A stretch of 34,815 nt of DNA, from assembly GCA_013151735.1 (NCBI GenBank), contig JAADHR010000062.1:1-34815 (forward strand), in the 5' to 3' direction. The position numbers and the translations under genes were made by a program. The DNA is from Calditrichota bacterium (GTDB lineage Bacteria; Zhuqueibacterota; JdFR-76; BMS3Abin05). The notes under the pieces are model-generated. The model was not told where the DNA came from. It made no database searches and saw only the letters and a program-made list of their open reading frames with translations. Shown here piece after piece: positions 5,645 through 31,840 of the stretch (position 1 is its first letter; each line of letters opens with the position of its first letter).

Positions 5645-6685
5645 ATGGTTACAGGTTTCAGCTATTTTGGGGTGCGAAATCCGGAATATGCGGTGATTGA
5701 TTTTAAACGAATGAAAAGCCACGGCGCCACAGCGGTTCTGCTGACGTTTGCGGAAGAAGATATGGAGTTTTATCCGGAGACGATGAAGGAGCTGGTGAGA
5801 CTGGCTCACGATGAAAATCTCCTGGTTTACATGAACCCCTGGGGTTTGGGCGGTGTGTTCGGAGGCGAAAGCTACTCCCGATTTATTACCCGAAATCCCG
5901 GCGATTTGCAGGTGGATGCCCAGGGACATCCCGTGCCGGCTGCCTGTTTTAACAGTCCCAAATTCAGGGCGTTTGTTAAAAAATGGGTGGAGGCGGTGGT
6001 CTTTTGCGGAGCCGATGTCATTTTATGGGATGAACCCCATTTTTATATGAGCCACTGGGATGAGGAGGGTTCGCCTGCGGCAGTGCCCAGGGAAACCTGC
6101 TATTGCCGCGCGTGCCAACAGAAATTTGAGGAGAAATACGGTTATCCGATGCCCCGGACCCGAACGGAAGATGTTCTGGATTTTCGGGAGGATTCCCTGA
6201 TTGGTTTTTTATCGGAAATGAGTCGTTTTGCCCGGGAAAAAGGCATGGAAAATGACGTATGCATGCTGCCGCCGTCTTTTCAACTGGACGACGGCATCCG
6301 GGACCCCGAAAAAGTGGCGCAAATTTCATCCGTAGATGTGCTGGCGACCGATCCCTACTGGGAATACGACGATCCGGAAGACCGGGTAAAAGACCGCTAT
6401 CTGAAGGATTCAAAAATCATAAAAACGCTGGCCGATACCTACAACAAGCAATCGGAGATGTGGATTAAGAATTTCAAGGTGAAAGCCGGAACGGAGCACT
6501 TTGTTAAGCTGGCCACAACGATTTCGGCTGAAGCCGGGGTCGATCGGATTTTAGCCTGGAGTTATCTGGGATCGGCCTACATGTCCTTTCTTCGAAGTGA
6601 CAATCCCTATTTGGTTTTTGATCTTCAGGGCGAGGCCTTTCAGAAATTGAACCGGCATTCGGAAAAAGTGAAGAATAGCGGGTGA
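5645..6685 (+). CDS. Unassigned TIM-barrel-like protein, possibly a glycoside hydrolase relative
   Basis: About 346 residues, no signal peptide. The alternating pattern (TAVLLTFAEEDMEFY, LLVYMNPWGLGGVFGG, ADVILWDEPHFYMSHWDEEG, VDVLATDPYWEY, RILAWSYLG) is that of a (beta/alpha)8 barrel. The conserved-looking WDEPHF sits where the catalytic acid of many glycoside hydrolase barrels lies. A cysteine group CYCRACQQKF near residue 155 could bind a metal; similar CxCxxCxxxF groups occur in hydrolase-like barrels. An ATG at 5633 overlaps the previous stop codon, but GGAGG at 5635-5639 points to the ATG at 5645. It belongs to the same operon as the ceramidase-like gene, so a shared substrate is plausible. 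No specific family could be named. Confidence 0.6.
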   Translation: MVTGFSYFGVRNPEYAVIDFKRMKSHGATAVLLTFAEEDMEFYPETMKELVRLAHDENLLVYMNPWGLGGVFGGESYSRFITRNPGDLQVDAQGHPVPAACFNSPKFRAFVKKWVEAVVFCGADVILWDEPHFYMSHWDEEGSPAAVPRETCYCRACQQKFEEKYGYPMPRTRTEDVLDFREDSLIGFLSEMSRFAREKGMENDVCMLPPSFQLDDGIRDPEKVAQISSVDVLATDPYWEYDDPEDRVKDRYLKDSKIIKTLADTYNKQSEMWIKNFKVKAGTEHFVKLATTISAEAGVDRILAWSYLGSAYMSFLRSDNPYLVFDLQGEAFQKLNRHSEKVKNSG

Positions 6686-6799: not shown

Positions 6800-7149
6800 G
6801 GGGGCGCTTTGGGTTCGACGGGATTGGAAAGAGACAAGAATGGCATACCGTGGTCTCCGGCACCACGTAAAATAGTCGGAAACAAAATATAAATGCAGAC
6901 TACAATTACGCATTGGCCGCTTAATTAGCGGTCACGTTCCCCTATCCGAGACCTGCATAGGGTAGGTGGAGCGTCGCATGTGCAGGTGCTCCTGGCAAAT
7001 TTCCGGGGTTGCCAGGTTAAGCTGACCGGATAGACTTGCGGCTCCCTTTGTCTGTTGAGGGCCCGCAAGCGACACTAATCAACAGACTATGTATGTAGAA
7101 ATTCTTGTCGGCTCTTTCTCGGACGCGGGTTCGATTCCCGCCGCCTCCA
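6800..7149 (+). ncRNA. ssrA: Transfer-messenger RNA (tmRNA)
   Basis: The 5' end GGGGGCG (6800-6806) pairs with CGCCTCC (7142-7148), forming the 7-bp acceptor stem; A7149 is the discriminator. The 5' part contains the conserved TTTGGGTTCGACGGGATT, and the 3' part has the T-arm GGTTCGATTCCC. The tag reading frame is at 6895-6921 and encodes ADYNYALAA followed by TAA; it is preceded by an A/T-rich AAAATATAAAT like that before the resume codon of other tmRNAs. The 3' CCA is not encoded (CTT follows the discriminator), so it must be added enzymatically. The RNA rescues stalled ribosomes with SmpB, which is not in this window. A terminator follows directly. Confidence 0.96.
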
Positions 7150-7156
7150 CTTATGG

Positions 7157-7203: not shown

Positions 7204-7220
7204 TGCACAAAAAAAGTGCA
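7204..7220. promoter_or_regulatory. NtrC-like enhancer palindrome upstream of the kinase/AAA+ regulator (site A)
   Basis: TGCAC (7204-7208), seven A residues, GTGCA (7216-7220). This is a perfect 17-bp palindromic arrangement matching the NtrC enhancer consensus TGCAC-N7-GTGCA. It lies 13 bp after the ssrA terminator and about 140 bp before the regulator start codon. Three more copies of the motif sit directly downstream of the regulator gene, so autoregulation is likely. A GTGCA half-site also occurs around 7338. Confidence 0.6.
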
Positions 7221-7362
7221 AATAAGTCTTGTTTTTCCCAATTTTTTTTAATACTATTTTTAAAAATGTTTCTATGTAAATTATTTCTACAAATTGTTCG
7301 ATATAGTTAAGGGCACTCCAAAAAGAGACTAATTTTGGTGCATAAAAAGTTGAGTGAGGATA

Positions 7363-10300
7363 ATGCTGATCGATAACAGGTATTTCGTGGAAAAGGCATT
7401 AGGGGAGGGTGGCAGCGGGAAGGTTTTTAAGGTGCTGGATAACATCTCTGGAGAAATTCTGGCCCTGAAACTTTTGAATCCGGATTTAATTTCCTCAGAC
7501 GAACTGGTTTTATTTGAGCGGGAATTTCTAAATCTCAAAAAGCTGTCGCATCCGAATATTATTCGTGTGTTTAATTTTGGCTTTGAAAAAAGCCGCCAGC
7601 CCTATTTTACCATGGATTTTGTCGAAGGTCCTGCCTTGATGGACCTGTTTTCTGAATCATTTGATCTCTCCTCCTTTGTTCGATATGCCACGCAAATCTG
7701 CCTGGCTCTGGATTATCTGCACAATCGCGGGATTATTCATCGTGACTTGAAACCCGCAAATATTTTGCTTCAGCCGAATAAAAATGATGAATTCCAGGCC
7801 TTACTCACTGATTTTGGTATGGCTGAAAATTTCCAGATATCAGACTTTGATCCGCGGGGCGGAAGCCATTTTTATGTTTCTCCGGAGGCTATCCGCGGTT
7901 GGAAAATAGACCCGCGTGCCGATTTGTATTCTCTTGGGGTGACGCTTTATGAAATTGCCACAGGGGAAAAACCCTTCACAGCTGAAACGCCCATTGAAGT
8001 TCTCAAACAGCACTTGCACAAAATTCCGGAAAATCCGACGGCAATCCGGAAAGATATTCCCTTTGAATTAAGTGAAATTATTTTCAAATTACTGGAGAAA
8101 AACCCGTCTGCCCGTTACAGCTCTGCCCTGGAGGTGGTTCAGGATCTATTGGAACTCTCTCCGGTTTCTATTCCCATTCCAAAATTACAGGCTTCTGCGC
8201 AGATTTGGGGAGGCGGATTTGTAGGGCGAAAGCCGGAACTCAAACGCCTGCGTCAGGTTCTTGAAACCAGCCGAAGTCAACAGAATCTCCATTTTGTACT
8301 GATTCACGGTGAGCGAGGCGTGGGCAAAACACGATTGCTGCAGGAGTTTTCCACACAGATTCAATTGGATGGCGGCAAGGTATTTTATCTGAATTCTTCC
8401 GATACCAGAGGGGTTCCCTACGGTCTGATTGTTGAACTCATTCGTCAAATTGGGGTTTCTGCTCCGGCCGGAATCGATCTGTCCGAGGATGAAGAAACCA
8501 TCTGGCATTTTATCCTGACGCACGGAAAAGGCCGAAAGATTCCTGAAATTTTTAAGGATAAGGCGCAGATTTTCGATGTTTTTGTTCGCTTGTTGGAAAA
8601 ATTTTCAACGGCCATTCGGCAACTGAAAAAAAATGATGGATTCTTGCCCCTTCTGGCCGTTCTGGACGATTTTCAGGAAGCATCGGAATCAATCCATCAC
8701 TTTATGCGCTACCTGATTTTTAACGGGACCTCCATTGAAATGCTTCTTGTGGGGCTGGTTTCCGGAGATGAAATTCGATTACAGGATTTTTATCAAAATT
8801 TTCAACCGGAAAAAACATTCCATCGGTTGGTGTTGAAGTCGTTTAATCATGTGGATTTTCAGACATTTCTCGAACAAAAAATGGCCAGAGTTAAAAACTT
8901 TGATTTGCTTTATAACGATTTATATGAACAAACCTCTGGCAACCCCTTGTTTTCTGAACATTTGCTTCAATATCTCATCGATAGGGAACTTCTGGTTCGA
9001 GAAAACGGATTCTGGGTCTGGAAGGGAATGAAACCAGGCGTTGGAATTCCTAATGCCATGTCAGACTTGTTGAAGTCTCGTTGGGAAAAACTCATACCCT
9101 CTGCCCGATCCATTTTGCAGGCTCTGGCTCTTCACGGAGAAGCCGTCCCCTTTGGGTTGCTTCAGAGCTTTTTTGAAGAAAAAAATGAGGCGTTTTTGGA
9201 GGGTGTGGATACCCTGTTGTCGGCGGGCCTTGTTCTCAGAGAAATTGTGGGCGAAGCCGTTCTGTTTCGATTGGCACAGCAGAGCTGGGCTGATTTTCTT
9301 AATGAGATTACCCCACCATCGGAGGCAAAAGCCATTCATGAGCGATGGATTGCCACCATTGAGGAACAGGGTGATGGATTGTCCAATGAATGGGCTGTAC
9401 GTTTGACCCACCATGCCCTCGAATGTCAAAATCGCGAAAAAGCAAAACAGTATCTGCCCATTGCCGCGGATTACGCGCGTTCCATGTTCGATATTCCCCA
9501 GGCTGTTCATTTTTATTCCGAATATTTGAAGCTCTTATCCGATGATGAATTTGAAATGCAGGAAAATGTGCTTGAGAAATTGGCCACACTTTATGAGCTT
9601 GGCGGGGAGTTTGAAAAAAGCCTGGATGTTATTCACAATGTGCTGGACGATCCGAATCGCTTTGATTTGACTAACGAAGCATTGTGGAAATGGAAGTTCC
9701 GGAATGTGGATATTCTTCAAAAAGTAGGCCGAGTAGATGATGTTTTCCGATTGTTAATAGATCAACAAAATGCATGGGAGTCTCTTTCCCCGGAATTGAA
9801 TGGGCGGGGGCACTATGAATTGGGATGGATTTACCGGTTAAAAGGTGATTTTGAAAAGGCCTATCACCAGTATGATATTGCTCTGGATCTGTTTAAAAAA
9901 GCAAAATCAGAAGCCAATTTGGGGTTTACCTATAATCGCATGGGGGTGACCTATCTTATTGAAAACAAATTGGATGAGGCGGAATCGGCCTTTCTGAAAA
10001 GCCTTGAGATATTTGACCGGATTACCCATTTTCGCGGAATGGCTCACGTTCACAATAATCTTGGAATTCTTTTCAGGCGAAAGGGTGATCTGAAACAAGC
10101 GAAAAGACATTATCAGAACTGCTTAAAAATCCGGCGAACCATAAAGGATGTCAGTTATCTTCCCCAGATCCTGAATAATCTGGCCAATGTACAATATTAT
10201 GAGGGGAACTGGAAGGACGCTTATAAGGCTTACAAGGAAGTCCTGAAAATTTCTCAAGGTCTGGGTTTGGAAGAAACAACCGCCGATGTTCTGGATAATC

Positions 10301-12576
10301 TGGGTATGCTGTTGTTTCATTTTGGCCAAATCGAAGAAGCCCTGATTTACGAAAAAAAATCCATTCAAACCGATTATCGGTTGGGGAATCTAAAAAACAT
10401 TGCCATGGCCATGGAACGAATGGGCGATATGTATGACGTAATCGAAAATTATCGACGGTCCCGCGCCTATTATCATCGAAGCCTCCGGATGCTTGAGAAG
10501 CTGAAAGCTGAGGAAGATACAGCCGAAGTCCTCTTGAAATTGGGGGCTCATTATTTAAAAGTAAACCAGAAAGAGAAGGCACTGGATTATCTGATCCAGG
10601 CGGAGGACATTTGCCAGATTTATCGTTTGGAGGAAGAACGGGCGCAGGTGGCTATTTATATCTTACAATACGCGCTTAAATACCATGATTATCAGCGCGG
10701 AGAGTATTATCGAAATTTTCTTATAAATAATTTATCCGTTTTTGCAGATCCGTTATGGCAGGGAATTGCCTATCGGCAGCTGGGTGACGCATGGAACAAA
10801 AAAGAACAGCTTACACAGGCACTGGAAAGCTACCAGAAATCTCTGGAAATTTTCATTCGTTTGGGTGCCGTTATCGAACAGGCGCGGACGCACAAGGCTC
10901 TTGCCTTAACGCATGCCATCAGGGATGATTTTGAGCAGGCCCAGGTTCACCTTAAAAAAGCGGTTCAACTGTTTGAAAAAATTCCTGCCCGCAGCGAACG
11001 GCTTCGCCTGATGAATCATTTGATCGAAACACAAGAGCACATCCTCGCCAATCTGCAACAGGGAACGGGGGGAGAAAGTCAAATAAACGCCCTCCAGCAG
11101 ACCAGTTTGATCGTTCATTCAATCTTCAATCTGGAAACCATGCTCCACAATATTATGAATACCGTCATTAATCTGCTGAAGGCGGACCGGGCCGCCATTC
11201 TTTTTCTGGACAAATCGAGCGGCGGTCTGGAGGTAAAGGTGAGCCGGGGCATGGAGGAAGCCACCATTGAAGATGCCATTCGGTTGAGTCAGTCGATTAT
11301 TGAGCGGGTGGAGAAAACGGGCAGTTCGGTACTTTCACGCAATACCATGGGAGATGACCGTTTCCGAAACAGCAAAAGTGTGCGAAATTTCCGAATCTTT
11401 TCGTTGATGTGCGTCCCGCTGAAACTGGAAGACCGCCTCATTGGCACGGTTTACATTGACAGTCGTAATCCCGATCGTATTTTCAGCTACAGGGATTTGG
11501 AGTTTCTGGAGAACATTTCCGATCTGGCGGCGGTAGCCATCAGCAACTCCGAATATTACGAGGAAGTGAAGCGCCGCAAAGATTCCCTTGAAAAAGATGT
11601 CAGAAACCTTCGCGAACTCATTAAACACACATTCCAATTCAATGATATGATTGGGACCAGTAAACCGATGCAGAAAATTTTTCAGGTGGTCTCAAAAATA
11701 TTGGATAAAAATGTGGATATTCTCCTCCGGGGGGAAAGCGGGACGGGAAAAGAAAAACTGGCGGGAATCATTCATTTCAACAGCAGTCGAAAAGATAAAC
11801 CGTTTGTAACGGTAAATTGTGCAGCAATTCCTCCCACATTGCTTGAAAGTGAATTGTTTGGAATCGAAAAACGCGTGGCCACGGGGGTGGATAAACACCT
11901 GGGTAAATTTGAACAGGCCGATGGAGGCACCATTTTTCTGGATGAAATTGGCGATATGAGCCTGGATACGCAGGCAAAGATTTTGCGTGTTATTCAGGAG
12001 CGGGAATTCCAGAGGATTGGGGGGACCAACACGGTAAAAGTTGATGTGAGAATTATTGCGGCAACGAATAAAAATCTGGAAGAGGCAATTCGAAACAAAA
12101 CCTTTCGCCAGGATTTGTACTACCGCCTGAATGTTTTGCCAATTGTCATTCCCCCTTTGCGGGAAAGAAAAGAAGATATTCCGCTGTTGGTGGAATATTT
12201 TGTAAAAAAATACGGTAATTCCGGAGATGTGGCAAAAATTACCGATGCGGCCATGAAGGCTCTTATTGATTACGATTGGCCTGGTAACGTTCGGGAATTG
12301 GAAAATGTTGTGCATCGCATGACGATATTTGCCGAAAATGGAAAAATTACGGTTAACGATTTGCCGGTCGAAATCCGTGCGAATAATAAGGTTCAGGCCC
12401 TTGTAAATTCCGGCAAAGGCAAAATGGCCCTGAAGGATTATGAGAGAACATTATTGATGGAGAGTCTGAGATTAAATGATTGGAATATCTCAAAAACCGC
12501 AAAGACTCTGGGTATTCATCGAAACACCCTCCACCGGAAGCTGAAAATCTATAAAATTGCAAAACCAAAATTGTAA
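7363..12576 (+). CDS. Giant multidomain regulator: Ser/Thr kinase - STAND ATPase - TPR array - GAF - AAA+ (sigma54-activator type) - Fis HTH
   Basis: 1737 residues (numbered from ATG 7363; GTG 7354 is an alternative, and the RBS GTGAGGA does not decide). Residues 1-265 are a Hanks-type kinase with GEGGSGKV, HRD at 126-128 and DFG at 150-152. From about 286 (FVGR) there is an AAA_16/STAND-like ATPase with Walker A GERGVGKT at 316-323. About 690-1240 is a TPR array. A GAF domain covers about 1244-1400. The AAA+ domain follows from 1426, with Walker A GESGTGKE at 1457 and Walker B IFLDEIGD around 1527. Its GAFTGA loop, used to contact sigma54, is replaced by RVATGV at 1504-1509. The HTH at about 1709-1728 has a recognition helix RNTLHRKLK, almost as in NtrC. 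It probably integrates phosphorylation and ligand signals and activates transcription, with the downstream repeat gene as target. Confidence 0.93.
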   Translation: MLIDNRYFVEKALGEGGSGKVFKVLDNISGEILALKLLNPDLISSDELVLFEREFLNLKKLSHPNIIRVFNFGFEKSRQPYFTMDFVEGPALMDLFSESFDLSSFVRYATQICLALDYLHNRGIIHRDLKPANILLQPNKNDEFQALLTDFGMAENFQISDFDPRGGSHFYVSPEAIRGWKIDPRADLYSLGVTLYEIATGEKPFTAETPIEVLKQHLHKIPENPTAIRKDIPFELSEIIFKLLEKNPSARYSSALEVVQDLLELSPVSIPIPKLQASAQIWGGGFVGRKPELKRLRQVLETSRSQQNLHFVLIHGERGVGKTRLLQEFSTQIQLDGGKVFYLNSSDTRGVPYGLIVELIRQIGVSAPAGIDLSEDEETIWHFILTHGKGRKIPEIFKDKAQIFDVFVRLLEKFSTAIRQLKKNDGFLPLLAVLDDFQEASESIHHFMRYLIFNGTSIEMLLVGLVSGDEIRLQDFYQNFQPEKTFHRLVLKSFNHVDFQTFLEQKMARVKNFDLLYNDLYEQTSGNPLFSEHLLQYLIDRELLVRENGFWVWKGMKPGVGIPNAMSDLLKSRWEKLIPSARSILQALALHGEAVPFGLLQSFFEEKNEAFLEGVDTLLSAGLVLREIVGEAVLFRLAQQSWADFLNEITPPSEAKAIHERWIATIEEQGDGLSNEWAVRLTHHALECQNREKAKQYLPIAADYARSMFDIPQAVHFYSEYLKLLSDDEFEMQENVLEKLATLYELGGEFEKSLDVIHNVLDDPNRFDLTNEALWKWKFRNVDILQKVGRVDDVFRLLIDQQNAWESLSPELNGRGHYELGWIYRLKGDFEKAYHQYDIALDLFKKAKSEANLGFTYNRMGVTYLIENKLDEAESAFLKSLEIFDRITHFRGMAHVHNNLGILFRRKGDLKQAKRHYQNCLKIRRTIKDVSYLPQILNNLANVQYYEGNWKDAYKAYKEVLKISQGLGLEETTADVLDNLGMLLFHFGQIEEALIYEKKSIQTDYRLGNLKNIAMAMERMGDMYDVIENYRRSRAYYHRSLRMLEKLKAEEDTAEVLLKLGAHYLKVNQKEKALDYLIQAEDICQIYRLEEERAQVAIYILQYALKYHDYQRGEYYRNFLINNLSVFADPLWQGIAYRQLGDAWNKKEQLTQALESYQKSLEIFIRLGAVIEQARTHKALALTHAIRDDFEQAQVHLKKAVQLFEKIPARSERLRLMNHLIETQEHILANLQQGTGGESQINALQQTSLIVHSIFNLETMLHNIMNTVINLLKADRAAILFLDKSSGGLEVKVSRGMEEATIEDAIRLSQSIIERVEKTGSSVLSRNTMGDDRFRNSKSVRNFRIFSLMCVPLKLEDRLIGTVYIDSRNPDRIFSYRDLEFLENISDLAAVAISNSEYYEEVKRRKDSLEKDVRNLRELIKHTFQFNDMIGTSKPMQKIFQVVSKILDKNVDILLRGESGTGKEKLAGIIHFNSSRKDKPFVTVNCAAIPPTLLESELFGIEKRVATGVDKHLGKFEQADGGTIFLDEIGDMSLDTQAKILRVIQEREFQRIGGTNTVKVDVRIIAATNKNLEEAIRNKTFRQDLYYRLNVLPIVIPPLRERKEDIPLLVEYFVKKYGNSGDVAKITDAAMKALIDYDWPGNVRELENVVHRMTIFAENGKITVNDLPVEIRANNKVQALVNSGKGKMALKDYERTLLMESLRLNDWNISKTAKTLGIHRNTLHRKLKIYKIAKPKL

Positions 12577-12577
12577 T

Positions 12578-12595
12578 TGCACCACTATTTGTGCA
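12578..12595. promoter_or_regulatory. NtrC-like enhancer palindrome (site B)
   Basis: TGCAC (12578-12582), an 8-nt spacer, GTGCA (12591-12595). It starts one base after the regulator's stop codon. The spacer is one base longer than the classical NtrC site. Its centre is about 280 bp upstream of the predicted start of transcription of the repeat gene, a distance typical of bacterial enhancers. Confidence 0.6.
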
Positions 12596-12644: not shown

Positions 12645-12662
12645 TGCACAATTTTAAGTGCA
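12645..12662. promoter_or_regulatory. NtrC-like enhancer palindrome (site C)
   Basis: TGCACAATTTTAAGTGCA: the same half-sites as site B with the same 8-nt spacer, here A/T only. The spacing from site B is 67 bp. Confidence 0.6.
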
Positions 12663-12714: not shown

Positions 12715-12731
12715 TGCACCATTCTTGTGCA
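12715..12731. promoter_or_regulatory. NtrC-like enhancer palindrome (site D)
   Basis: TGCACCATTCTTGTGCA: same half-sites with a 7-nt spacer, the exact NtrC consensus arrangement. It lies about 145 bp upstream of the predicted transcription start of the repeat gene and is 70 bp from site C, so the sites are spaced by nearly the same distance. Confidence 0.65.
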
Positions 12732-12842
12732 ATATCCACTTTTATTGACAAAATACCGAAAATAATTAATGTCACGGGTCTTTATAACTTCATATATATC
12801 AATGGGTTGCATTTTGCGTATTCTTTCTACATTTAACAGGAA

Positions 12843-12858
12843 TGGTATTATAATTGCA
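12843..12858 (+). promoter_or_regulatory. Predicted -24/-12 (sigma54-type) promoter of the repeat-protein gene
   Basis: TGGTATTATAATTGCA contains the invariant GG and GC of sigma54 promoters at exactly 10 bp separation (TGG at 12843-12845, TTGCA at 12854-12858). The start would be near 12869, 38 bp before the ATG. The same stretch also contains TATAAT (12849-12854), with a weak -35 (TCTACA at 12826-12831) 17 bp away, so a sigma70 promoter is an alternative. That matters because the candidate activator lacks a standard GAFTGA loop. Confidence 0.55.
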
Positions 12859-12906
12859 GTAAGAAAATTGGATTATTGAAAAATTTAACCTGGGAGGAGG
12901 ATTGAC

Positions 12907-13341
12907 ATGCGTTCTTTTGTCAAAATCGCGGTGGTGGCTATTGTTGTGGCTATGGTGTTTGGATTGCCGTACACAGGTACGTTTGCAAACGAGCTCAACA
13001 ATGTTCCGGTGAGTAGCATTGCTCAGGGACCGAGAGATATTCCGGTTGGTGGGATTGCTCAGGGACCGAGAGACATTCCGGTTGGCGGGATTGCTCAAGG
13101 GCCGAGAGACATTCCGGTCGGTGGGATTGCTCAGGGACCAAGAGATATTCCGGTCGGTGGGATTGCTCAGGGACCGAGAGGGGCCGAGAGACATTCCGGT
13201 CGGTGGGATTGCTCAGGGACCGAGAGATATTCCGGTCGGTGGGATTGCTCAGGGACCGAGAGATATTCCGGTTGGTGGGATTGCTCAGGGACCGAGAGAC
13301 ATCCCGGTTGGCTAAACCCAAAAGTTGTATGCCTGTTTTAG
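12907..13341 (+). CDS. Secreted 12-residue tandem-repeat protein, frame shifted within the repeats
   Basis: The ATG at 12907 follows a strong GGGAGGAGG site. Residues 1-27 form a Sec-type signal peptide (hydrophobic VAIVVAMVFGLPY, likely cleavage after FA in GTFANE). After a short linker come repeats of GGIAQGPRDIPV. Four complete repeats are read, then a 10-nt insertion (about 13181-13190) shifts the frame. The remaining three repeats are then translated as an unrelated Cys/Trp-containing repeat (RWDCSGTERYSG) ending at 13341. Without the insertion the protein would have eight repeats, end in IPVG at 13312 with TAA at 13313-13315, and be 132 residues long. No known family was recognised. It is preceded by three NtrC-like sites and a -24/-12-like promoter, and followed by a terminator, so it is a single-gene transcript, probably under control of the giant regulator. 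Confidence 0.7.
   Translation: MRSFVKIAVVAIVVAMVFGLPYTGTFANELNNVPVSSIAQGPRDIPVGGIAQGPRDIPVGGIAQGPRDIPVGGIAQGPRDIPVGGIAQGPRGAERHSGRWDCSGTERYSGRWDCSGTERYSGWWDCSGTERHPGWLNPKVVCLF
13009..13306 (+). repeat. Eight tandem 36-bp coding repeats, the fifth with a 10-bp insertion
   Basis: Units at 13009, 13045, 13081, 13117, 13153 (46 bp), 13199, 13235 and 13271. Each encodes a 12-residue period, [G/S][G/S]IAQGPRDIPV. The units differ at only a few positions (GTT/GTC, GAT/GAC, CCG/CCA, CAG/CAA), mostly synonymous, which indicates selection on the peptide before the frame was disturbed. The first unit has SS in place of GG. The insertion in unit 5 is GGGCCGAGAG at about 13181-13190, an imperfect duplication of the neighbouring GGGACCGAGAG. 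Confidence 0.95.
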
Positions 13342-13407
13342 CCCTTAAGCCGCCCATTCATTTGTGAAGATAACAGCATTAAATGAAATGGAATTCTATA
13401 AGCTGAG

Positions 13408-13438
13408 GGGGTTGAGATTATTCTCAATCCCTTTTTTT
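13408..13438 (+). terminator. Terminator after the repeat-protein gene
   Basis: GGGGTTGAGA (13408-13417) pairs with TCTCAATCCC (13422-13431) over a 4-nt TTAT loop, followed by seven T residues (13432-13438). It separates the repeat gene from the two small genes that follow. Confidence 0.93.
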
Positions 13439-13461
13439 ATGTCTTGAAATGATGAAAAAAT

Positions 13462-13815
13462 ATGATAAATCCTTATAAAATTGAAAATAGGGTTGAATAT
13501 ATTTCCAAGCGGCTTTCGGCCTACATTACGGTTATTGCGTATGTGAGCTATGAAGGATATCAGGATATTCGCGAAGTCTTAATGGATATTTTTCGGCGTC
13601 TTGCGAAGGAACCCAAGTATTTTCGGGCGGTTTCTTTTGGCATTGTGGATATCATTCCGGAGAGTGACCTAAGCGATCTTATAAAATTTCGATTTTCCCT
13701 GGAAGATTTACCCAAAATCGTTGTTTACCGTTCTGGCGGAAGTTCTGTTTTCGAAGTGGATAAGATTGATTATCAAAAGATAAAAACGGCGATTGATCTT
13801 GCCCTGATTCGTTAA
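13462..13815 (+). CDS. Small thioredoxin-fold-like protein without CxxC
   Basis: 117 residues, no signal peptide, no cysteine. The order of strands and helices (ITVIAYVSYEGY, a long helix DIREVLMDIFRRLA, FGIVDIIPE, then LPKIVVYRSGG and a C-terminal helix) resembles a thioredoxin fold, with the cis-proline-like LPKIVVY in the expected place. The catalytic CxxC is absent, so a redox role is unlikely and a binding or chaperone-like role more plausible. The ribosome binding site is weak. It lies just after the terminator of the repeat gene and is followed by a similar protein on the same strand. The fold is inferred from pattern only; no specific function is proposed. Confidence 0.6.
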   Translation: MINPYKIENRVEYISKRLSAYITVIAYVSYEGYQDIREVLMDIFRRLAKEPKYFRAVSFGIVDIIPESDLSDLIKFRFSLEDLPKIVVYRSGGSSVFEVDKIDYQKIKTAIDLALIR

Positions 13816-13918
13816 GGTTTTTCGTGGTGGCGTGGATTCTTAATAGACAGACCCATTTGTAAGCTGAACAGAGAAACGGTTTTTTTGCGTGCGGCGGAAG
13901 AAACGGTGGGAGGTGAAT

Positions 13919-14275
13919 ATGTGGTGGAAAATCTCGAATGAAAAGCAATATCTCCAGCTCCGGATTCTTAATCAACCTAAAATCTTTATCTGGCTGCCGC
14001 CCTCATTTAATAAAAGTGAACAAAATGAGCTCAAACGGCTCGTCTCAAGTATTCATACAAAATACTATCCCTCCAATAAAATTATTATTTCTCTGGTAGA
14101 AGTCACCCGCGATCCCATGCTGCGGCAACTGCTTAACCGGATAAATCCCTCACAAAATGGGCCGCTTGTTACCGGATATCTCCCAAATGGTGCCACCTAT
14201 TTCAAATCGCATGAAATATCTGCAAAAATGCTTGAAAGCTTGATTCAGAAGCTGCTCACGATTTCCCATAATTAG
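13919..14275 (+). CDS. Second small thioredoxin-fold-like protein without CxxC
   Basis: 118 residues, no signal peptide. The architecture parallels the preceding gene: a strand PKIFIWLPPSF, a helix QNELKRLVSSIHTKY, a strand IIISLVEVTRD, then PLVTGYLPNG with a final strand and helix. No cysteines are present, so it cannot act as a thiol oxidoreductase. GGGAGGTG at 13908-13915 fixes the ATG at 13919; an upstream in-frame GTG at 13889 is less likely. The two proteins look like distant paralogues and probably act together, possibly with the secreted repeat protein or the regulator next door, but that link rests on position only. Confidence 0.6.
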   Translation: MWWKISNEKQYLQLRILNQPKIFIWLPPSFNKSEQNELKRLVSSIHTKYYPSNKIIISLVEVTRDPMLRQLLNRINPSQNGPLVTGYLPNGATYFKSHEISAKMLESLIQKLLTISHN

Positions 14276-14582
14276 CTGTATCCCGTGGCCCGAAAATTTG
14301 AAATCCACCCCAAGAATCCTGCCGGACAAGGGGAAGGTCCCCTGTTTTCTTCAATTAAATTTCGATAACAATTGGGCAGTAACCGTTTCCCCGCCCGCTG
14401 TTTTTTCATTGTAATTTTTTAAACTCGCCCCCAATGGAAACTCAATCCAATCCTTTAGGATCTATCCTCCGTCCTCCAAAAATAAATTTTGAACGTTTTG
14501 AATGGAGTGTTTGTATCCTCTATCAGATTCAGCAAAAAAAAGAACCAATGTAACGTCAAACGAAAATGAGGAGGTACAAGAA
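14276..14582. other. Intergenic region without a recognisable gene
   Basis: This 307-bp gap holds a weak 6-bp hairpin AGGGGA/TCCCCT (14329-14343) followed by GTTTTC, which may end the preceding transcript. It also holds overlapping small inverted repeats TCCTTTAGGA (14451-14460) and AGGATCTATCCT (14457-14468), a possible operator for the following gene. The strong GAGGAGGT (14568-14575) serves the ATG at 14583. An open frame extends upstream to 14502 but has no ribosome binding site. Confidence 0.5.
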
Positions 14583-15059
14583 ATGAAAAAGGCCGTCGGT
14601 ATTTTCATCATGCTGGTCGTATTTGCGGTGGGCTCTGTGTTCGCTCAGGGCTTTCCAAAAGAAGCGGAGAATCTGCTTAATCCAACCCAAAAGGCGAAAA
14701 TCGAAAAGCTTCGTACAGATTTTCAGAAGCAAAAGATTGAATTGAATGCAAAAATTCGAGTGGCTCAATTGGACTTAAGGGAAATGCTTCGCAGCTCACG
14801 CGTCCCTGACCTCTCGAAAATTGACAAAAAACAGGCAGAAATTTCCCGACTCAAGAATCAAATGGCGACGCTGCGACTGCACCATCTGATTGCCGTTCGT
14901 AAAGTTCTCACGGATGAACAATGGCAGAAAATCCAGCAATTTCGGGGATCAATGATGAAACGCAACATGCGCGATCGGATGGGCAAAAAAATGCACCATG
15001 GGATGAGACCCCCTATGCGAGAGAGATGTTTTGAACGCCCGGGATTCAAAAGACCTTAG
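14583..15059 (+). CDS. Spy/CpxP-like periplasmic protein
   Basis: 158 residues. A clear signal peptide (MKKAVGIFIMLVVFAVGSVFA, cleavage before QGF) is followed by a mostly helical, charged domain. The sequence LTDEQWQKIQQF matches the LTxxQ-type motif of Spy/CpxP/ZraP proteins, and the tail is rich in Met, Arg and His (MKRNMRDRMGKKMHHG). Members of this family are periplasmic chaperones or metal/stress sensors. The start at 14583 is set by GAGGAGGT. It lies just before an ECF sigma/anti-sigma/RseB-like cluster, so it is a likely effector or sensor of that envelope-stress response, although a strong terminator separates it from the sigma gene. A metal-binding role is possible from the His/Met tail, not shown. 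Confidence 0.75.
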   Translation: MKKAVGIFIMLVVFAVGSVFAQGFPKEAENLLNPTQKAKIEKLRTDFQKQKIELNAKIRVAQLDLREMLRSSRVPDLSKIDKKQAEISRLKNQMATLRLHHLIAVRKVLTDEQWQKIQQFRGSMMKRNMRDRMGKKMHHGMRPPMRERCFERPGFKRP

Positions 15060-15121
15060 GATTTTCAAACGTCTACAAAAAACCGGTAGAGCCATAAAAA
15101 TAGTGTGCGGCACAGGTAATT

Positions 15122-15158
15122 GGCCGGGGGCAGACGTATTTGCCGCCGGCCGATTTTT
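15122..15158 (+). terminator. Terminator after the Spy-like gene
   Basis: GGCCGGGGGCA (15122-15132) pairs with TGCCGCCGGCC (15141-15151) with one mismatch around an 8-nt loop, followed by GATTTTT. Strong GC stem with a short T tract. Confidence 0.8.
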
Positions 15159-15178
15159 AAAAATGAATTGGAATAAAC

Positions 15179-15207
15179 TTGACAATGCCGGAATCGCGTA
15201 TTTTATT
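15179..15207 (+). promoter_or_regulatory. Predicted promoter of the ECF sigma factor operon
   Basis: TTGACA at 15179-15184, a 17-bp spacer, and TTTATT at 15202-15207 (four of six matches to TATAAT). It lies about 100 bp before the sigma factor gene. It resembles a housekeeping promoter more than a typical ECF promoter, so autoregulation is not evident from it. Confidence 0.45.
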
Positions 15208-15305
15208 TAAACGGACTGTCTTTTGTCAGAGTGAACAATGCCGGTAAATTATAACTGAAATCCGCGTTGAGCGGATCATAACCTCTGTTTCCATATCTGT
15301 GAAAA

Positions 15306-15944
15306 ATGCAGAAAATGGAACATCCATTAAGCGGATTAGGATCGAATGATTTGTTGCAGAGCGTGAAAACGAAAGAAGATATCCCTGTTTCTGATGAAGA
15401 ATTGATGTCTCGATTTCAGGCAGGCGAGCGGGCTGCTTTTAATCGGCTTGTGGATCGGTATCGCAGCCGGGCGGTCTCGGTAGCCTTTCAATATGTGCAT
15501 AATCTGGAGGAGGCCAAGGATGTAACCCAGGATGCCTTTGTAAAGGTATTTCAAGCGGCGGATTCCTTTCGGGCGGGGGAGAAATTTTCACCCTGGTTTT
15601 TCAAAATTCTTGTTAATCAGGCTATTAATGTTTACCGCCGAAAGAAGGTTGTTCATTTTTTTTCATTATTTCAGAATGAATCGGATGATGAGCGAAATAG
15701 TTTAATTGATACGCTTGAGGCGCAGGATTCGTCGGAAAATACGGTTAATGAAACAAAAGAGGTGGTTTGGAAAGGCATCGAAAAACTTCCGGAAAAATTG
15801 AGACACATTGTGGTTTTACGCGATATAGAGGGGTTTTCAGAAGAGGAAACCAGTAAAATTCTGAACGTTCCACTGGGAACGGTTAAATCCCGGCTTTTCC
15901 ATGCGCGAAAAAAATTGCGAAAACACATAGAAAGAATTCTTTGA
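15306..15944 (+). CDS. ECF-subfamily RNA polymerase sigma factor (RpoE-like)
   Basis: 212 residues. Region 2 spans about residues 30-98, with the typical FNRLVDRYRSRAVSVAFQYV and the core-binding DVTQDAFVKVFQA. Region 4 spans about 155-208, with LPEKLRHIVVLRDIEGFSEEE and the helix-turn-helix LNVPLGTVKSRLFHARKKLR. Length and order are standard for ECF sigma factors. An N-terminal extension of about 28 residues is longer than usual; a second ATG at 15315 is an alternative start, and no clear ribosome binding site decides. The anti-sigma-like gene overlaps or follows directly, and an RseB-like gene comes third, so this is an RpoE/RseA/RseB-type envelope-stress operon. Confidence 0.95.
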   Translation: MQKMEHPLSGLGSNDLLQSVKTKEDIPVSDEELMSRFQAGERAAFNRLVDRYRSRAVSVAFQYVHNLEEAKDVTQDAFVKVFQAADSFRAGEKFSPWFFKILVNQAINVYRRKKVVHFFSLFQNESDDERNSLIDTLEAQDSSENTVNETKEVVWKGIEKLPEKLRHIVVLRDIEGFSEEETSKILNVPLGTVKSRLFHARKKLRKHIERIL

Positions 15945-15952
15945 AAGGACAA

Positions 15953-16486
15953 ATGCGAATGAAATCGCTTTGCAAGAATACGCAACGTGTGTTAATGGCC
16001 TTTGATGGTGATGTTCATCGCCTTCTGAAACAGCATCCGGAAATGGCGAATCATTTAAAAAAGTGTCCTGTTTGCCGGTCAGAAGCCGGCAGGATCAGAC
16101 GCCAGTCGGTGCTGCTACGCGGTCAGCGGCTTCAGATTGAGGATAAAGCGTTCTGGGCGGATTTCGAAAGAGGCTTGTATCGCAAGTTGCAGAATCCACA
16201 AAAAGGCTCATTTTTTAGGAGAATTCAATTGGCTCTGAGCCGCATTGTCCGAGGATTTCTGTTCCAGCCAGCCTATCGTTTTGGATTGGCTGTTGCCGTT
16301 CTTTTTCTCGTTTCCTATTGGGGGTATTCTTCTTTTACGGCACACAAGGCCGCCGTTATCGACCCCTATGATTATTTGTATGAAAGCTATCAGGAGGCTT
16401 CCGACCGTAACCCGGTTTTCCAATCCTTCTCCGATCCGGCGGACGAACTGATTGAGTTTGCCGATATGTCAGGGGAGGGAAGATGA
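15953..16486 (+). CDS. Anti-sigma-factor-like membrane protein with N-terminal zinc site
   Basis: About 177 residues. Residues 40-60 hold a zinc-binding anti-sigma-like motif HLKKCPVC (H-x3-C-x2-C), as in ZAS-domain anti-sigma factors, though the surrounding helices are divergent. A single transmembrane segment lies near residues 114-130 (FGLAVAVLFLVSYWGYSS), leaving a short acidic periplasmic part. This is the topology expected for RseA-like proteins that hold the sigma factor at the membrane. AAGGA at 15945-15949 serves either ATG 15953 or 15959. It starts a few bases after the sigma gene stop, and its own stop overlaps the start of the RseB-like gene (ATGA), so the three are translationally coupled. 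Confidence 0.75.
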   Translation: MRMKSLCKNTQRVLMAFDGDVHRLLKQHPEMANHLKKCPVCRSEAGRIRRQSVLLRGQRLQIEDKAFWADFERGLYRKLQNPQKGSFFRRIQLALSRIVRGFLFQPAYRFGLAVAVLFLVSYWGYSSFTAHKAAVIDPYDYLYESYQEASDRNPVFQSFSDPADELIEFADMSGEGR

Positions 16487-17595
16487 GAAGACGGTTGAGA
16501 ATTGCAGGGTTGCTTTTTACTCTTCTGAGCATTTTCAGCGGAACCCTTTTCGCAAAAAACGACCTGCAGACCGCTTTTGAAAAGGTGAAACGGGGGTACG
16601 AAACAGTTCGCTATCATGCTATTGTAATGGATACGATGGCCGTTTCACACCGAATGGGGCAACATCGTTCACCGGATAAACTCCGGTATCGAATAGAAAA
16701 ATGGGAGGTCTGGTACGACGGCCCCGATCGACTGCGGCTTGTGCGGTTTCCGGGACGCCATGCACGAAAACTCATTATCATAAAAAATGGTAAAACATTT
16801 TACACAAAAATTCGCGATTTCTGGGTAGCTCGACCCGTTCCGCAAAGAGAAAAGGATCGTATTCGAGAATTCCCGATACGCGTGAGAGGAAAATCTTACC
16901 TAAAACTGGTCGAAAAGAACTACACGATCCAATTAAGGCCCGATGGGACACTTGCTAATCGCGCTGCCGATATTCTTTCAATCCTTCCGAACTATCCGGG
17001 AAGATTAATCTGGAAAATCTGGCTGGATGCCCGGACGGGAATTATCCTTCGCCAGGTACAACAAATTGAAACCCCACGCGGACTCAAAACAATTAAGGCA
17101 AAACGAGTGATTGCCATTGATTTTCCGAAAAGTTTTCAGGATTCCCTGTTTGTTGTTTCCGGGAGAGTGGTTGAAAAGAAGGGCGCCATGGGGTGGCGAA
17201 GAAAAAGGCACTTTAAGGGGATGGGAAGCGTATTTCGCCGCCTGGAAAATCTGGCAAAAGCGGCTCCGTATCCAATTTATCTGCCGCGCCCGCTGCCCAA
17301 GGGTTTTGCTTTTATTGAGGGGCGCTTCACCCGGCACCACAACATGGCGATGATCCAATCTCACTTCAGCGACGGTATGATTGATTTTTCGATCTTTCAA
17401 ATTGAGGCATCAAATCACATGGCGAAGCGATTTTTGGATCGGATGCGGCGGCACCACCCGCCGGAAAATCGGCGGCCCCCGATGGAGGTCATTCCGTTTG
17501 AACGGGATGGATTCACCTTTCTGATTATGGGAAATGTCCCGGCTCCCTGGCTTCAAAGGCTGACGCGCCGTTTGCAGCCGTTGCCCAAAAAGTAA
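16483..17595 (+). CDS. RseB/MucB-like periplasmic regulator of sigma factor activity
   Basis: 370 residues with a signal peptide (RIAGLLFTLLSIFSGTLFA). The N-terminal part (to about residue 215) looks like the lipoprotein-carrier/MucB-RseB fold, with repeated strands in YRIEKWEVWYDGPDRLRLV and RKLIIIKNGKTFYTK. The C-terminal part (about 255-370) has the APYPIYLPRPLPKGFAF and FTFLIMGNVPAPWLQRL patterns seen at the RseB C-terminal domain. Family members bind the periplasmic part of the anti-sigma factor and shield it from proteolysis, sensing lipids or misfolded lipoproteins. The gene overlaps the anti-sigma-like gene by 4 bp. The assignment relies on both pattern and context; an outer-membrane lipoprotein-sorting function is a possible alternative. 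Confidence 0.72.
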   Translation: MRRRLRIAGLLFTLLSIFSGTLFAKNDLQTAFEKVKRGYETVRYHAIVMDTMAVSHRMGQHRSPDKLRYRIEKWEVWYDGPDRLRLVRFPGRHARKLIIIKNGKTFYTKIRDFWVARPVPQREKDRIREFPIRVRGKSYLKLVEKNYTIQLRPDGTLANRAADILSILPNYPGRLIWKIWLDARTGIILRQVQQIETPRGLKTIKAKRVIAIDFPKSFQDSLFVVSGRVVEKKGAMGWRRKRHFKGMGSVFRRLENLAKAAPYPIYLPRPLPKGFAFIEGRFTRHHNMAMIQSHFSDGMIDFSIFQIEASNHMAKRFLDRMRRHHPPENRRPPMEVIPFERDGFTFLIMGNVPAPWLQRLTRRLQPLPKK

Positions 17596-24316: not shown

Positions 24317-26398
24317 TTAGCGAATGATTAAAATTTTTGTACTGAGGATTTCAGCCCCCACTTTCATTTTTACCAGGTACACCCCGGAACTGACCAGATG
24401 TCCCCATTGATCCCTGCCATTCCAGATGGCTTCATAGTGTCCCGGCTGGTAGGTTGCCTGAACCAGTACCAGGATGAGCCGTCCCGTTACATCATAAATA
24501 CGAATCTCAACCGGATAGCTGGATTTTGCGCCCGAAATTTTAAACACCACGTGCGTAAAAGATTGGCCGTTTTCCGGCATAAATGGATTGGGGTAGCTGT
24601 TCAGCAACTGGAATTGTTCAGGCGGGGAATTATTTTCAGTCAAGTTTTGTTCCACTTCAGTGCCAGGCGGATTATTCGGCTGCGTTTGCTGAAAGCTGGT
24701 GTATTTGGTTACAATCCCGTAGAGAATACTCAGGCGAATGATTTCCTTTTTGTATTCCTGGCCCTGATTGCTGTTTTCACCCACGATATCAATCAAAGCC
24801 AGCAAATAGTCGATTTTCTTTTTGGCCCACATTTTCGGGATAAAAAGATTTTTGGTGGAATCCCCCGAAAAGGTCACATCGTAATTGAATGTGAGGGAAT
24901 CCTTAACCCCGCGGCCGCTCAAAGTGACGGTAGCCGCCCCGGGGGTTTTGTAGCGACCCAACAGTACCAACTGCTCCCCCACAAAAATATCCGGAATCCG
25001 CACCGGATAAACCTCGTAAACATCCCCGCCATTAAAAGCCACCGAAATGTTCTGAAGCAGCGGGTTTTGAATCTTATTGTAAAATGCAGCAATTCGATCC
25101 CGCACATCTCCCTGATCCATTACATATTGTGCCAGGCCGTCGTTTTGTTCCGCCAGGGACGTCAACAGGTAGCGTTCCACATCGGCTCCCACACCAAATA
25201 CGAACAAGCGCACATTTTTGGTGTTGGCGGCCTTTACATCGTCCAGGATTTGCTGGGAATCCGTTGTTCCTACTGTGGCCACGCCATCCGTCAGAAAAAT
25301 AATAATATTTTCCGTTGTGTCCGGCATGGATTGATTGAGCGCTTTAAGCAGGGCCTCATGAATGTTGGTGCCTCCACCCGGTTGAATAGCATTTACAAAA
25401 TCCACCCCGCTGTTAATATTGTTTTGAGTGGCGGGAACCAACTCTTGCCGAAATTCAGATGTTCCATCACTAAACGAAATAATATTGAAATGATCGGCCT
25501 CGTTCAAGTGCCTCAGACAGTAAGAGGCCGCATCTTTGGCCTGCTGCATTTTTACCCATTTCATGCTGCCCGATTTGTCAATCACAAAGGTGAAATATTT
25601 GTCAAGAATTTCCCCTTGCGATGTCTCCGGGTTGGGTTCCGCCAGCATTAAAAAGTAGCCGTCACTGGTGTCAGGCTTCATGCTCAATAAAAACACACCC
25701 AATTCCTTTTGCGACACTTTGTAGGTAAACGCTAAATCTTCATTCGGGCTGAAGGAGGTTGCCGAATAAAAAAGCGACGCAAGCGTGTCTCCCACCTCCA
25801 ATGATTGAGGGGTAAAATTCTCTAAGTTTACATCCACCAGGGTTCGTTGGGAATGAATGGTCACGGAGAATGCCAGGGAATCGAGCGGATGTTTTTCAAA
25901 ATTGCCCAGATCCAGCGGATAATCATATTGCATTTTTCCGGAATTATAGCTGAGGAGTTCCATGTAGGTGAGATGAACCACCAATTCCGAATCCGGAGGC
26001 AGTGTATCCAGAAATGTAAAAAAGAAGGGACTTTTTCCAAAGTAATCCAAATAGGTATAGTCGGGATAGCCTCCCGGATTGGTGGCCGTCGTGTCCATGG
26101 GCTGCCCCACAATTTGGGCCGTAAAATGTTTCCCGTTCATGTCCCAGTTGAAACCGGTTACCACGGCCTTCAACGGCATGGGGAATCCGTATTTCATAAC
26201 CACAGAATCACCCGTGGTGTTTTTAAACGTTTGGCGCGCAACCGTAATAGCCACCTGATTATTTACTTCAACTGAGACTTCCACGCGCGTGGGCGTCAGG
26301 TAGGTTTTGGATTGATTCATCACCTTAATAAGACCGCCGGCCTGTGCGAATGCCGGAATCATCCAAATCGCAATCAAAATGAATAATAACCGTTTCAT
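24317..26398 (-). CDS. Secreted VIT-vWA domain protein with C-terminal FlgD-like/T9SS-type sorting module
   Basis: About 693 residues. A signal peptide (MKRLLFILIAIWMIPAFAQA) is followed by a VIT domain (about 25-180, as in inter-alpha-trypsin inhibitor heavy chains), then a vWA domain with MIDAS motif DKSGS near residue 272 and FLTDGVATVG later. The last 90 residues (LLNSYPNPF, then IYDVTGRLI, WNGRDQWG and SSGVYLVKM) are a FlgD-like Ig fold of the type used as a C-terminal secretion signal in T9SS bacteria. The ATG is fixed by GGGAGAG 5-6 bp upstream. Such proteins bind ligands via a metal at the vWA site, probably at the cell surface. The next gene upstream is a clear paralogue; both lie in the same orientation about 160 bp apart. 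Confidence 0.9.
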   Translation of the reverse strand: MKRLLFILIAIWMIPAFAQAGGLIKVMNQSKTYLTPTRVEVSVEVNNQVAITVARQTFKNTTGDSVVMKYGFPMPLKAVVTGFNWDMNGKHFTAQIVGQPMDTTATNPGGYPDYTYLDYFGKSPFFFTFLDTLPPDSELVVHLTYMELLSYNSGKMQYDYPLDLGNFEKHPLDSLAFSVTIHSQRTLVDVNLENFTPQSLEVGDTLASLFYSATSFSPNEDLAFTYKVSQKELGVFLLSMKPDTSDGYFLMLAEPNPETSQGEILDKYFTFVIDKSGSMKWVKMQQAKDAASYCLRHLNEADHFNIISFSDGTSEFRQELVPATQNNINSGVDFVNAIQPGGGTNIHEALLKALNQSMPDTTENIIIFLTDGVATVGTTDSQQILDDVKAANTKNVRLFVFGVGADVERYLLTSLAEQNDGLAQYVMDQGDVRDRIAAFYNKIQNPLLQNISVAFNGGDVYEVYPVRIPDIFVGEQLVLLGRYKTPGAATVTLSGRGVKDSLTFNYDVTFSGDSTKNLFIPKMWAKKKIDYLLALIDIVGENSNQGQEYKKEIIRLSILYGIVTKYTSFQQTQPNNPPGTEVEQNLTENNSPPEQFQLLNSYPNPFMPENGQSFTHVVFKISGAKSSYPVEIRIYDVTGRLILVLVQATYQPGHYEAIWNGRDQWGHLVSSGVYLVKMKVGAEILSTKILIIR

Positions 26399-26557
26399 GG
26401 CACTCTCCCTGATTTTTGGTTTTTCATGATACATTCCCCTGATAGAATGAATCGGAGTTAAACCCCCATTGTGATTTGTTCAAGTCAAATAAATCGATAA
26501 AATTTCCTCCATTTTATTTTTGGTTGACGCTAATGACCTGCGGCAATATGAACAAAA

Positions 26558-29699: not shown

Positions 29700-29707
29700 A
29701 TTTACCT

Positions 29708-30946: not shown

Positions 30947-30964
30947 TTTGAAACCTTTGCCTCC

Positions 30965-31839: not shown

Positions 31840-31840
31840 G

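What the first reader, a model, noticed from the sequence alone, without database searches (positions are those of the whole stretch)
12907..13341. Secreted tandem-repeat protein of 12-residue units GGIAQGPRDIPV
Eight almost identical repeats with mainly synonymous differences follow a Sec signal peptide. The protein has a 'GG' before each IAQGPRDIPV block, so the repeats could be released as identical small peptides, or form a regular solenoid or adhesive fibre. No known family was recognised. The dedicated enhancer-type promoter suggests tightly controlled, strong expression (GGGAGGAGG ribosome binding site).
Basis: partly seen in the sequence, partly recalled or inferred. Interest (0 to 1): 0.7.

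Follow-up and report, generated by a model that had tools for sequence, protein, structure and literature searches.

The report
Secreted repeat-peptide precursor beside its regulator
A little-known bacterium carries a gene for a secreted protein built from copies of one short peptide, next to the giant regulator that very probably controls it; related species keep the gene pair but change the peptide, as expected if the protein is chopped into small peptides that act as signals or effectors.

Summary
The repeat gene is real, but "eight repeats in one protein" is only partly right. The ancestral stop, shared with the sister species, is TAA at 13313-13315.

Comparison with three genomes changes the picture. 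The gene is one half of a cassette: a 1740-aa regulator (kinase, AAA_16, TPR, GAF, sigma-54 AAA+, Fis HTH), then three palindromes about 67 bp apart, a -24/-12 promoter, a Sec-type signal peptide with peptide repeats, and a terminator. In this genome all four TGCAC-N7/8-GTGCA palindromes lie in the cassette. The sister has three copies of SGPVDIPVG. Another family of the order has five copies of ADPLDTPMG with linkers of uneven length and no GG. Another phylum has the same regulator followed by a different, non-repetitive small protein with a signal peptide.

Best reading: a precursor cut into nonapeptides, under direct control of its neighbour. It works like the multi-copy pheromone propeptides of Bacillales RRNPPA systems but is not a member. 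Cleavage, export and sensing are inferred. Solenoid, fibre and GG-processing are not supported.

The parts
7204..7220 (.). Palindrome TGCACAAAAAAAGTGCA 134 bp upstream of the regulator (probable autoregulatory site)
   Evidence: one of only four matches in the 3.95 Mb genome, all in this cassette. The same motif lies upstream of the regulator in G001 (L034:3687) and G004 (L048:1310).
7354..12576 (+). 1740-aa regulator: Ser/Thr kinase, AAA_16, TPR array, GAF, sigma-54 AAA+ and Fis-type HTH domains
   Evidence: Pfam. Orthologues in G001 (71% identity), G004 (36%, split over two contigs) and G217 (another phylum, same architecture). GAFTGA loop reads RVATGV.
12578..12595 (.). Regulator-site palindrome 1, TGCACCACTATTTGTGCA
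   Evidence: conserved in G001.
12645..12662 (.). Regulator-site palindrome 2, TGCACAATTTTAAGTGCA
   Evidence: present with one mismatch in G001 and G004.
12715..12731 (.). Regulator-site palindrome 3, TGCACCATTCTTGTGCA, 128 bp upstream of the promoter
   Evidence: at 127 bp in G001 and 134 bp in G004.
12843..12858 (+). Sigma-54-type -24/-12 promoter TGGTATTATAATTGCA; overlaps a sigma-70-like TCTACA-17-TATAAT (12826-12854)
   Evidence: Conserved in G001; in G004 TGGTATGGTTGTTGCC and in G217 TGGCATATCAATTGCT, where the TATAAT is absent.
12892..12939 (+). Ribosome-binding site and first 11 codons, nearly identical at DNA level between the two species
   Evidence: 47 of 48 bases identical and 12 of 12 third positions in codons 1-12, against 50% for synonymous codons of the regulator.
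12907..12987 (+). Sec-type signal peptide, predicted cleavage TFA|NE
   Evidence: Sequence inspection; equivalents AFA|SG in G001 and VFA|AD in G004. SignalP not available.
13018..13186 (+). Repeat units in the start-codon frame: four intact 12-residue units (core QGPRDIPVG) and the start of unit 5
13099..13262 (+). 82-bp tandem duplication (13099-13180 and 13181-13262, one mismatch) that breaks the reading frame
13187..13315 (+). Repeat units 6-8 in frame +1, ending in DIPVG and the ancestral stop TAA 13313-13315 shared with the sister
13405..13440 (+). Intrinsic terminator directly after the repeat gene
   Evidence: -21.2 kcal/mol, z -5.4; also in G001 (z -5.3).
13462..13815 (+). 117-aa thioredoxin-fold protein without CxxC, next gene; relation to the cassette unproven
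   Evidence: 69% identical in G001, absent elsewhere at E 0.001; Foldseek to thioredoxins at E 1e-4 from a model of pLDDT 64.
13889..14275 (+). 128-aa protein of unknown fold, conserved next to the previous gene in G001; relation unproven
   Evidence: 59% identity; model too poor for fold search.

Best explanation
The gene encodes a Sec-exported precursor of a short peptide. The adjacent regulator binds the TGCAC-N7/8-GTGCA palindromes before its own gene and before the peptide gene, and switches on a strong single-gene transcript. After signal-peptide removal, proteases cut the array at the linkers and release several copies of one nonapeptide: here QGPRDIPVG (perhaps with GIA in front), SGPVDIPVG in the sister, ADPLDTPMG in G004. 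The most likely role is a signal, possibly re-imported and read by the regulator's TPR half in a positive loop; a secreted effector is the alternative. Shown by sequence: cassette, coding repeats, conserved core with changing linkers, dedicated palindromes, terminator. Inferred: export, direct regulator binding, cutting. Speculative: sensing by the TPR half.
For: Coding: only synonymous differences between units. Orthologues: G001 encodes MRSFVKVAVVAVSVALALGTIQLTAFA|SGPVDIPVG-GIM-SGPVDIPVG-GIA-SGPVDIPVG*; G004 encodes signal peptide | ADPLDTPMG x5 with linkers TSSKATYTTT, TNAT, TNAT, TATIA, right after the regulator. Core PxDxPxG is invariant across the three species. Core similarity beats shuffles of the same letters (p 0.0006-0.0014 in register, 0.002-0.017 over all registers). 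Signal-peptidase sites would free the first core exactly in G001 and G004, and arrays in G000 and G001 end exactly at the core's final Gly. This fits a unit that is released, not folded. Control: four genome matches of the palindrome, all in the cassette. I defined it from the peptide promoter, and it then turned up upstream of the regulator in three genomes. Spacing is 67/70, 67/69 and about 65/68 bp in G000, G001 and G004. The sensor half diverges faster than the output half between congeners (TPR 64% against GAF 89% and AAA+ 83%), as the peptide does. Oligopeptide-binding proteins (PF00496) occur in G000, G001 and G004.
Against: No expression, export, protease or peptide data. The window copy is frameshifted as assembled. 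No dedicated protease, permease or modifying enzyme lies beside it. G217 keeps the regulator but its small secreted protein is not repetitive, and no PF00496 match was found there, so re-import is not general. The regulator's RVATGV loop departs from GAFTGA; single changes at the central Phe mostly abolish sigma-54 activation (PMC3162934), although GVATGV in Desulfovibrio DVUA0100 is predicted to be active (PMC4641369). Only three genomes carry the repeat gene.
Confidence: 0.5

Rival explanations
1. The peptide is an effector (antimicrobial, surface-active or chelating peptide) released in bulk; the regulator responds to some other cue through its kinase, GAF or TPR parts and the peptide is not sensed by the producer.
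For: Strong ribosome-binding site, terminator and single-gene transcript suit bulk production; multiple sensor domains in the regulator; G217 pairs the same regulator with an unrelated small secreted protein.
Against: No immunity, exporter or maturation gene beside it. The core is neither cationic nor amphipathic and has no Cys or His (inspection).
Confidence: 0.25
2. The intact secreted repeat protein is a structural or adhesive component (fibre, matrix, periplasmic linker).
For: Tandem repeats with P, G and D are common in extracellular structural proteins (general knowledge); strong regulated expression suggested by the ribosome-binding site and terminator.
Against: Only three units (33 mature residues) in G001; linkers of 4, 4, 5 and 10 residues in G004 destroy any period; no anchoring or sorting domain.
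Confidence: 0.12
3. In this genome the gene is a real frameshifted copy making a 144-aa chimeric protein or a dead gene; the cassette is decaying here. (This can be true alongside the best explanation for the family.)
For: The assembled contig shows an 82-bp out-of-frame duplication; the ORF stays open to 13341.
Against: Units 6-8 keep the ancestral frame with synonymous changes only and the stop shared with G001. Repeats of 36 bp are a classic place for short-read assembly errors.
Confidence: 0.3
4. The transcript acts mainly as RNA (a regulatory leader), the peptide being incidental.
For: 47 of 48 bases identical around the ribosome-binding site and first 11 codons, with 12 of 12 third positions of codons 1-12 kept.
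Against: Repeats vary only synonymously; the peptide core is kept in G004 although the DNA has diverged; no Rfam match; leader fold not significant (z -1.2 and -0.8).
Confidence: 0.05

Closest known systems
RRNPPA quorum-sensing systems of Bacillales (Rap, NprR, PlcR, AimR) with multi-copy propeptides (PMC9765709, PMC10075063)
   Same: TPR-containing regulator with the Sec-exported propeptide gene immediately downstream; up to six copies of the mature peptide per propeptide; mature peptides of 5-10 residues (last point from general knowledge).
   Different: Receptor is 1740 aa with kinase, AAA_16, GAF, sigma-54 AAA+ and Fis HTH domains instead of 250-500 aa; operator palindromes and a -24/-12 promoter; host lies outside Firmicutes (inferred); peptide binding not shown.
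Sigma-54 enhancer-binding proteins of the GAF / NifA-NorR-FhlA type (PMC3162934, PMC4641369)
   Same: GAF, AAA+ and Fis-HTH output module, palindromic upstream sites 128 bp from the promoter, -24/-12 promoter.
   Different: Extra N-terminal kinase, AAA_16 and TPR sensor half; loop RVATGV instead of GAFTGA in this genus, GAFTGA in G217.
Yeast alpha-factor precursor and animal polyneuropeptide precursors (from general knowledge)
   Same: Signal peptide followed by identical short peptides separated by variable cleavable linkers.
   Different: No dibasic (KEX2-type) sites; bacterial; processing enzyme unknown.
Double-glycine (C39 peptidase) peptides (from general knowledge)
   Same: A GG occurs before the repeat block in two species.
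   Different: Signal peptide is Sec-type, no leader with GG at its end, GG absent in G004, no C39 transporter next to the gene.

Membership tests
RRNPPA peptide quorum-sensing system | Propeptide gene directly adjacent to a gene for a TPR protein | tested here: met
   same order in G000, G001 and G004.
RRNPPA peptide quorum-sensing system | Small propeptide with Sec signal peptide | tested here: inconclusive
   Signal peptides clear by inspection in three species; no SignalP; the window copy is 144 aa and frameshifted.
RRNPPA peptide quorum-sensing system | Receptor of about 250-500 aa with N-terminal HTH or phosphatase part and C-terminal TPR | tested here: not met
   1740 aa; TPR central and Fis HTH C-terminal.
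RRNPPA peptide quorum-sensing system | Found in Firmicutes, nearly all in Bacilli | tested here: inconclusive
   Nearest named relative is bacterium BMS3Bbin03, unclassified Bacteria; the phylum was not named by the tools, and assignment outside Firmicutes rests on gene content (inference).
RRNPPA peptide quorum-sensing system | Mature peptide re-imported by Opp and bound by the TPR domain | not testable with these tools
   PF00496 proteins exist in G000, G001 and G004 but not G217; binding needs experiment.
Sigma-54 enhancer-binding protein | Sigma54_activat AAA+ domain with Fis-type HTH | tested here: met
   PF00158 at 5.8e-69 and PF02954 at 1.8e-11.
Sigma-54 enhancer-binding protein | GAFTGA sigma-contact loop | tested here: not met
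   RVATGV in G000 and G001, GAFTGA in G217; GVATGV in DVUA0100 is predicted functional (PMC4641369).
Sigma-54 enhancer-binding protein | Target promoter with GG-N10-GC (-24/-12) element | tested here: met
   Present in all four cassettes; overlaps a sigma-70-like element in G000 and G001 (for G000; G001 by reading).
Double-glycine leader peptide | Leader ending in GG and cut by a C39 transporter | tested here: not met
   Sec-type signal peptide; GG absent in G004.
Surface fibre or solenoid repeat protein | Many repeats of fixed period, often with an anchoring domain | tested here: not met
   Three units in G001, irregular linkers in G004, no domains.

The most novel reading that the evidence does not exclude
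This is a self-contained peptide-signalling circuit of a new kind: a sigma-54-family regulator with a STAND/TPR sensor half drives its own gene and a precursor that yields several copies of a nonapeptide, which returns to the cell and activates the regulator. Species differ in peptide and sensor together, and a cousin in another phylum uses the same regulator type with a different palindrome and a different small secreted protein.
Probability: 0.28. Interest if true: 0.85.

Novelty: new variant of a known kind. Interest (0 to 1): 0.6.

Why it matters
Peptide pheromones with a dedicated cytoplasmic TPR regulator are known from Firmicutes. A cassette of the same logic in an uncultivated lineage, wired to a sigma-54-type activator and with precisely placed operator sites, would extend repeat-type peptide precursors to new phyla. 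It also gives a directly testable ligand (QGPRDIPVG, SGPVDIPVG or ADPLDTPMG), receptor and promoter for each species.

Tried and rejected
Family searches of the repeat protein and both downstream proteins (Pfam, NCBIfam) gave nothing above cut-off. A pattern for IPVGGxxxGPxxIPVG over GTDB r220 contigs found only the sister BMS3Bbin03, and none in viral contigs. The G004 peptide against 388 genomes gave only noise: I read seven of the eight weak hits and none is a secreted repeat protein. Regulator relatives in G388 and G389 have no clear peptide gene downstream; in G389 a TrkH-like transporter follows (not searched exhaustively in G388). Two TGCAC palindromes 68 bp apart in G004:C90 suggested a second target, but no -24/-12 element or peptide gene was found there. 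A leader hairpin that would hide the ribosome-binding site is not better than shuffled sequence. The 128-aa neighbour gave a model too poor to place. A possible tail similarity (LVDxxxxFF) between the G004 and G217 small proteins is weak (p 0.04) and not used. An Rfam scan found only the tmRNA. Paper searches found no description of this cassette.

Full report
What is there. The ORF at 12907 begins with a strong ribosome-binding site and a Sec-type signal peptide and runs into a 36-bp tandem array. The seven comparable units differ only at synonymous sites in this frame (7 of 7 distinct changes; about 0.28 of random changes would be synonymous, so chance is 1-2 in 10,000), and at no synonymous site in the other frames. 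The array is therefore coding. However, unit 5 is 46 bp long because 13099-13180 is duplicated out of frame at 13181-13262. The printed ORF thus carries four intact units and then about 50 residues of out-of-frame repeat; the coordinate 13341 is the end of that shifted frame. Units 6-8 continue in frame +1 to TAA at 13313-13315. The sister species has the same final codons GTT GGC TAA, so that is the ancestral end. Whether the shift is an assembly error or a mutation cannot be decided here: the window's genome is a 225-contig assembly and only this copy exists in it.

Relatives. In G004, from another family of the same order, the regulator is split between two contig ends (C297 and C152; that they are one gene is inferred from the match positions). 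Directly after its 3' end lies a 109-aa protein: signal peptide | ADPLDTPMG TSSKATYTTT ADPLDTPMG TNAT ADPLDTPMG TNAT ADPLDTPMG TATIA ADPLDTPMG and a 17-residue tail. The shared core is nine residues, x-[GD]-P-x-D-[IT]-P-[VM]-G; it is more similar than shuffles allow. The signal-peptidase site lies directly before the first core in G001 and G004, and arrays in G000 and G001 end exactly with the core. Linkers differ in sequence and length. That is the pattern of a precursor from which a fixed unit is cut, not of a folded solenoid.

The regulator and its sites. The gene upstream (7354-12576) has kinase, AAA_16, TPR, GAF, Sigma54_activat and HTH_8 domains. Between it and the repeat gene lie three palindromes TGCAC-N7/8-GTGCA at 12578, 12645 and 12715, and one lies 134 bp before the regulator (7204). 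In the 3.95 Mb genome these four are the only matches (control pattern: two). I derived the motif from the peptide promoter; it then turned up upstream of the regulator in G000, G001 and G004, which makes direct control of both genes by the regulator the natural reading. The three peptide-side sites keep their spacing: 67 and 70 bp in G000, 67 and 69 in G001, about 65 and 68 in G004. The first G004 site, at about 626, is degenerate and read from sequence; the other two have one mismatch each. The -24/-12 element lies 127-134 bp after the third site. In G217, a genome from another phylum, the regulator with the same architecture is followed by different palindromes (TGTAAATTAAAGTTTACA and GTGTAAACAATAGTTTACAC), a near-consensus TGGCATATCAATTGCT promoter, and a small signal-peptide protein that is not repetitive. 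Its HTH recognition region (LSRQALIKK) differs from that of the three order members (HRNTLxR), matching the change of palindrome. The cassette logic is thus probably older than the repeat peptide.

A caution on sigma-54. The sigma-contact loop is RVATGV in G000 and G001 and canonical GAFTGA in G217; all other activators seen in the fetched loci have GAFTGA or close variants. PMC3162934 reports that changes at the central Phe or Thr usually abolish sigma-54 activation. PMC4641369 predicts that GVATGV in Desulfovibrio DVUA0100 remains active. In G000 the -24/-12 element overlaps TCTACA-17-TATAAT, so a sigma-70 promoter cannot be excluded in this genus.

Transcript and neighbours. A strong terminator follows the repeat gene in both congeners (z -5.4 and -5.3), so the transcript is probably single-gene. 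The next two genes are conserved in G001 only; the first has a thioredoxin fold without CxxC by a moderate model. Their link to the cassette is not established; in G004 an S49-type peptidase (by inspection) follows instead.

How it most likely works. The regulator, when active, binds the three sites and fires the peptide promoter; the precursor is exported by Sec, the signal peptide is removed, and linkers are trimmed to give a nonapeptide. By analogy with RRNPPA systems, in which TPR receptors sit next to Sec-exported propeptides with up to six peptide copies (PMC9765709), the peptide may return through an oligopeptide permease and bind the TPR region. PF00496 proteins exist in G000, G001 and G004, and the sensor half of the regulator diverges faster than the output half. 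These last facts are compatible, not decisive: TPR regions often evolve fast, and G217 shows no PF00496 match. The effector reading remains open.

Membership. It is not an RRNPPA system: receptor size and domain order fail the definition, and the host group very probably does too. It is a sigma-54-family activator by domains, with a non-canonical loop in this genus. It is not a double-glycine peptide and not a recognisable surface fibre.

Verdict. Observation partly confirmed, interpretation partly supported. A well-supported regulatory cassette for a secreted repeat-peptide precursor, with an inferred peptide-release mechanism and an open signalling question.

Noticed in passing
window 12892-12939 and L034:9383-9430: Around the ribosome-binding site and first 11 codons of the repeat gene the two species share 47 of 48 bases, and all 12 third positions of codons 1-12, while synonymous sites in the regulator are only 50% identical. 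RNA-level constraint is likely; no significant fold found.
   Followed up: partly
L095:5772-6014 and 6078-6314 (G217): Small signal-peptide protein after the regulator homologue, followed by a 78-aa protein consisting of little more than a Fis-type HTH (PF02954).
   Followed up: partly
L120:5054-5139 (G004:C90): Two exact TGCAC-N8-GTGCA palindromes 68 bp apart upstream of an 82-aa membrane protein on the minus strand; possible second target of the regulator.
   Followed up: partly
window 7354-12576, loop about residues 1503-1515: Sigma-contact loop RVATGV instead of GAFTGA, conserved in the congener.
   Followed up: partly
window 6800-7152: tmRNA gene (tag ADYNYALAA) directly upstream of the cassette.
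   Followed up: no
window 14502-17595: Metal_resist/CpxP-like small protein, ECF sigma factor, a probable anti-sigma factor and a 370-aa secreted protein in a row: likely an envelope-stress operon next door.
   Followed up: no
window 24317-26434 and 26558-28654 (minus strand): Two consecutive VIT plus VWA domain secreted proteins with a C-terminal FlgD-Ig/sorting-like tail (YPNPF motif).
   Followed up: no
window 28947-32572 (minus strand): Cluster of CxxCH cytochromes, cytochrome b and a Rieske protein: a bc-type respiratory complex.
   Followed up: no
window 13462-13815: Thioredoxin-fold protein lacking the CxxC active site, genus-specific in the genomes searched.
   Followed up: partly
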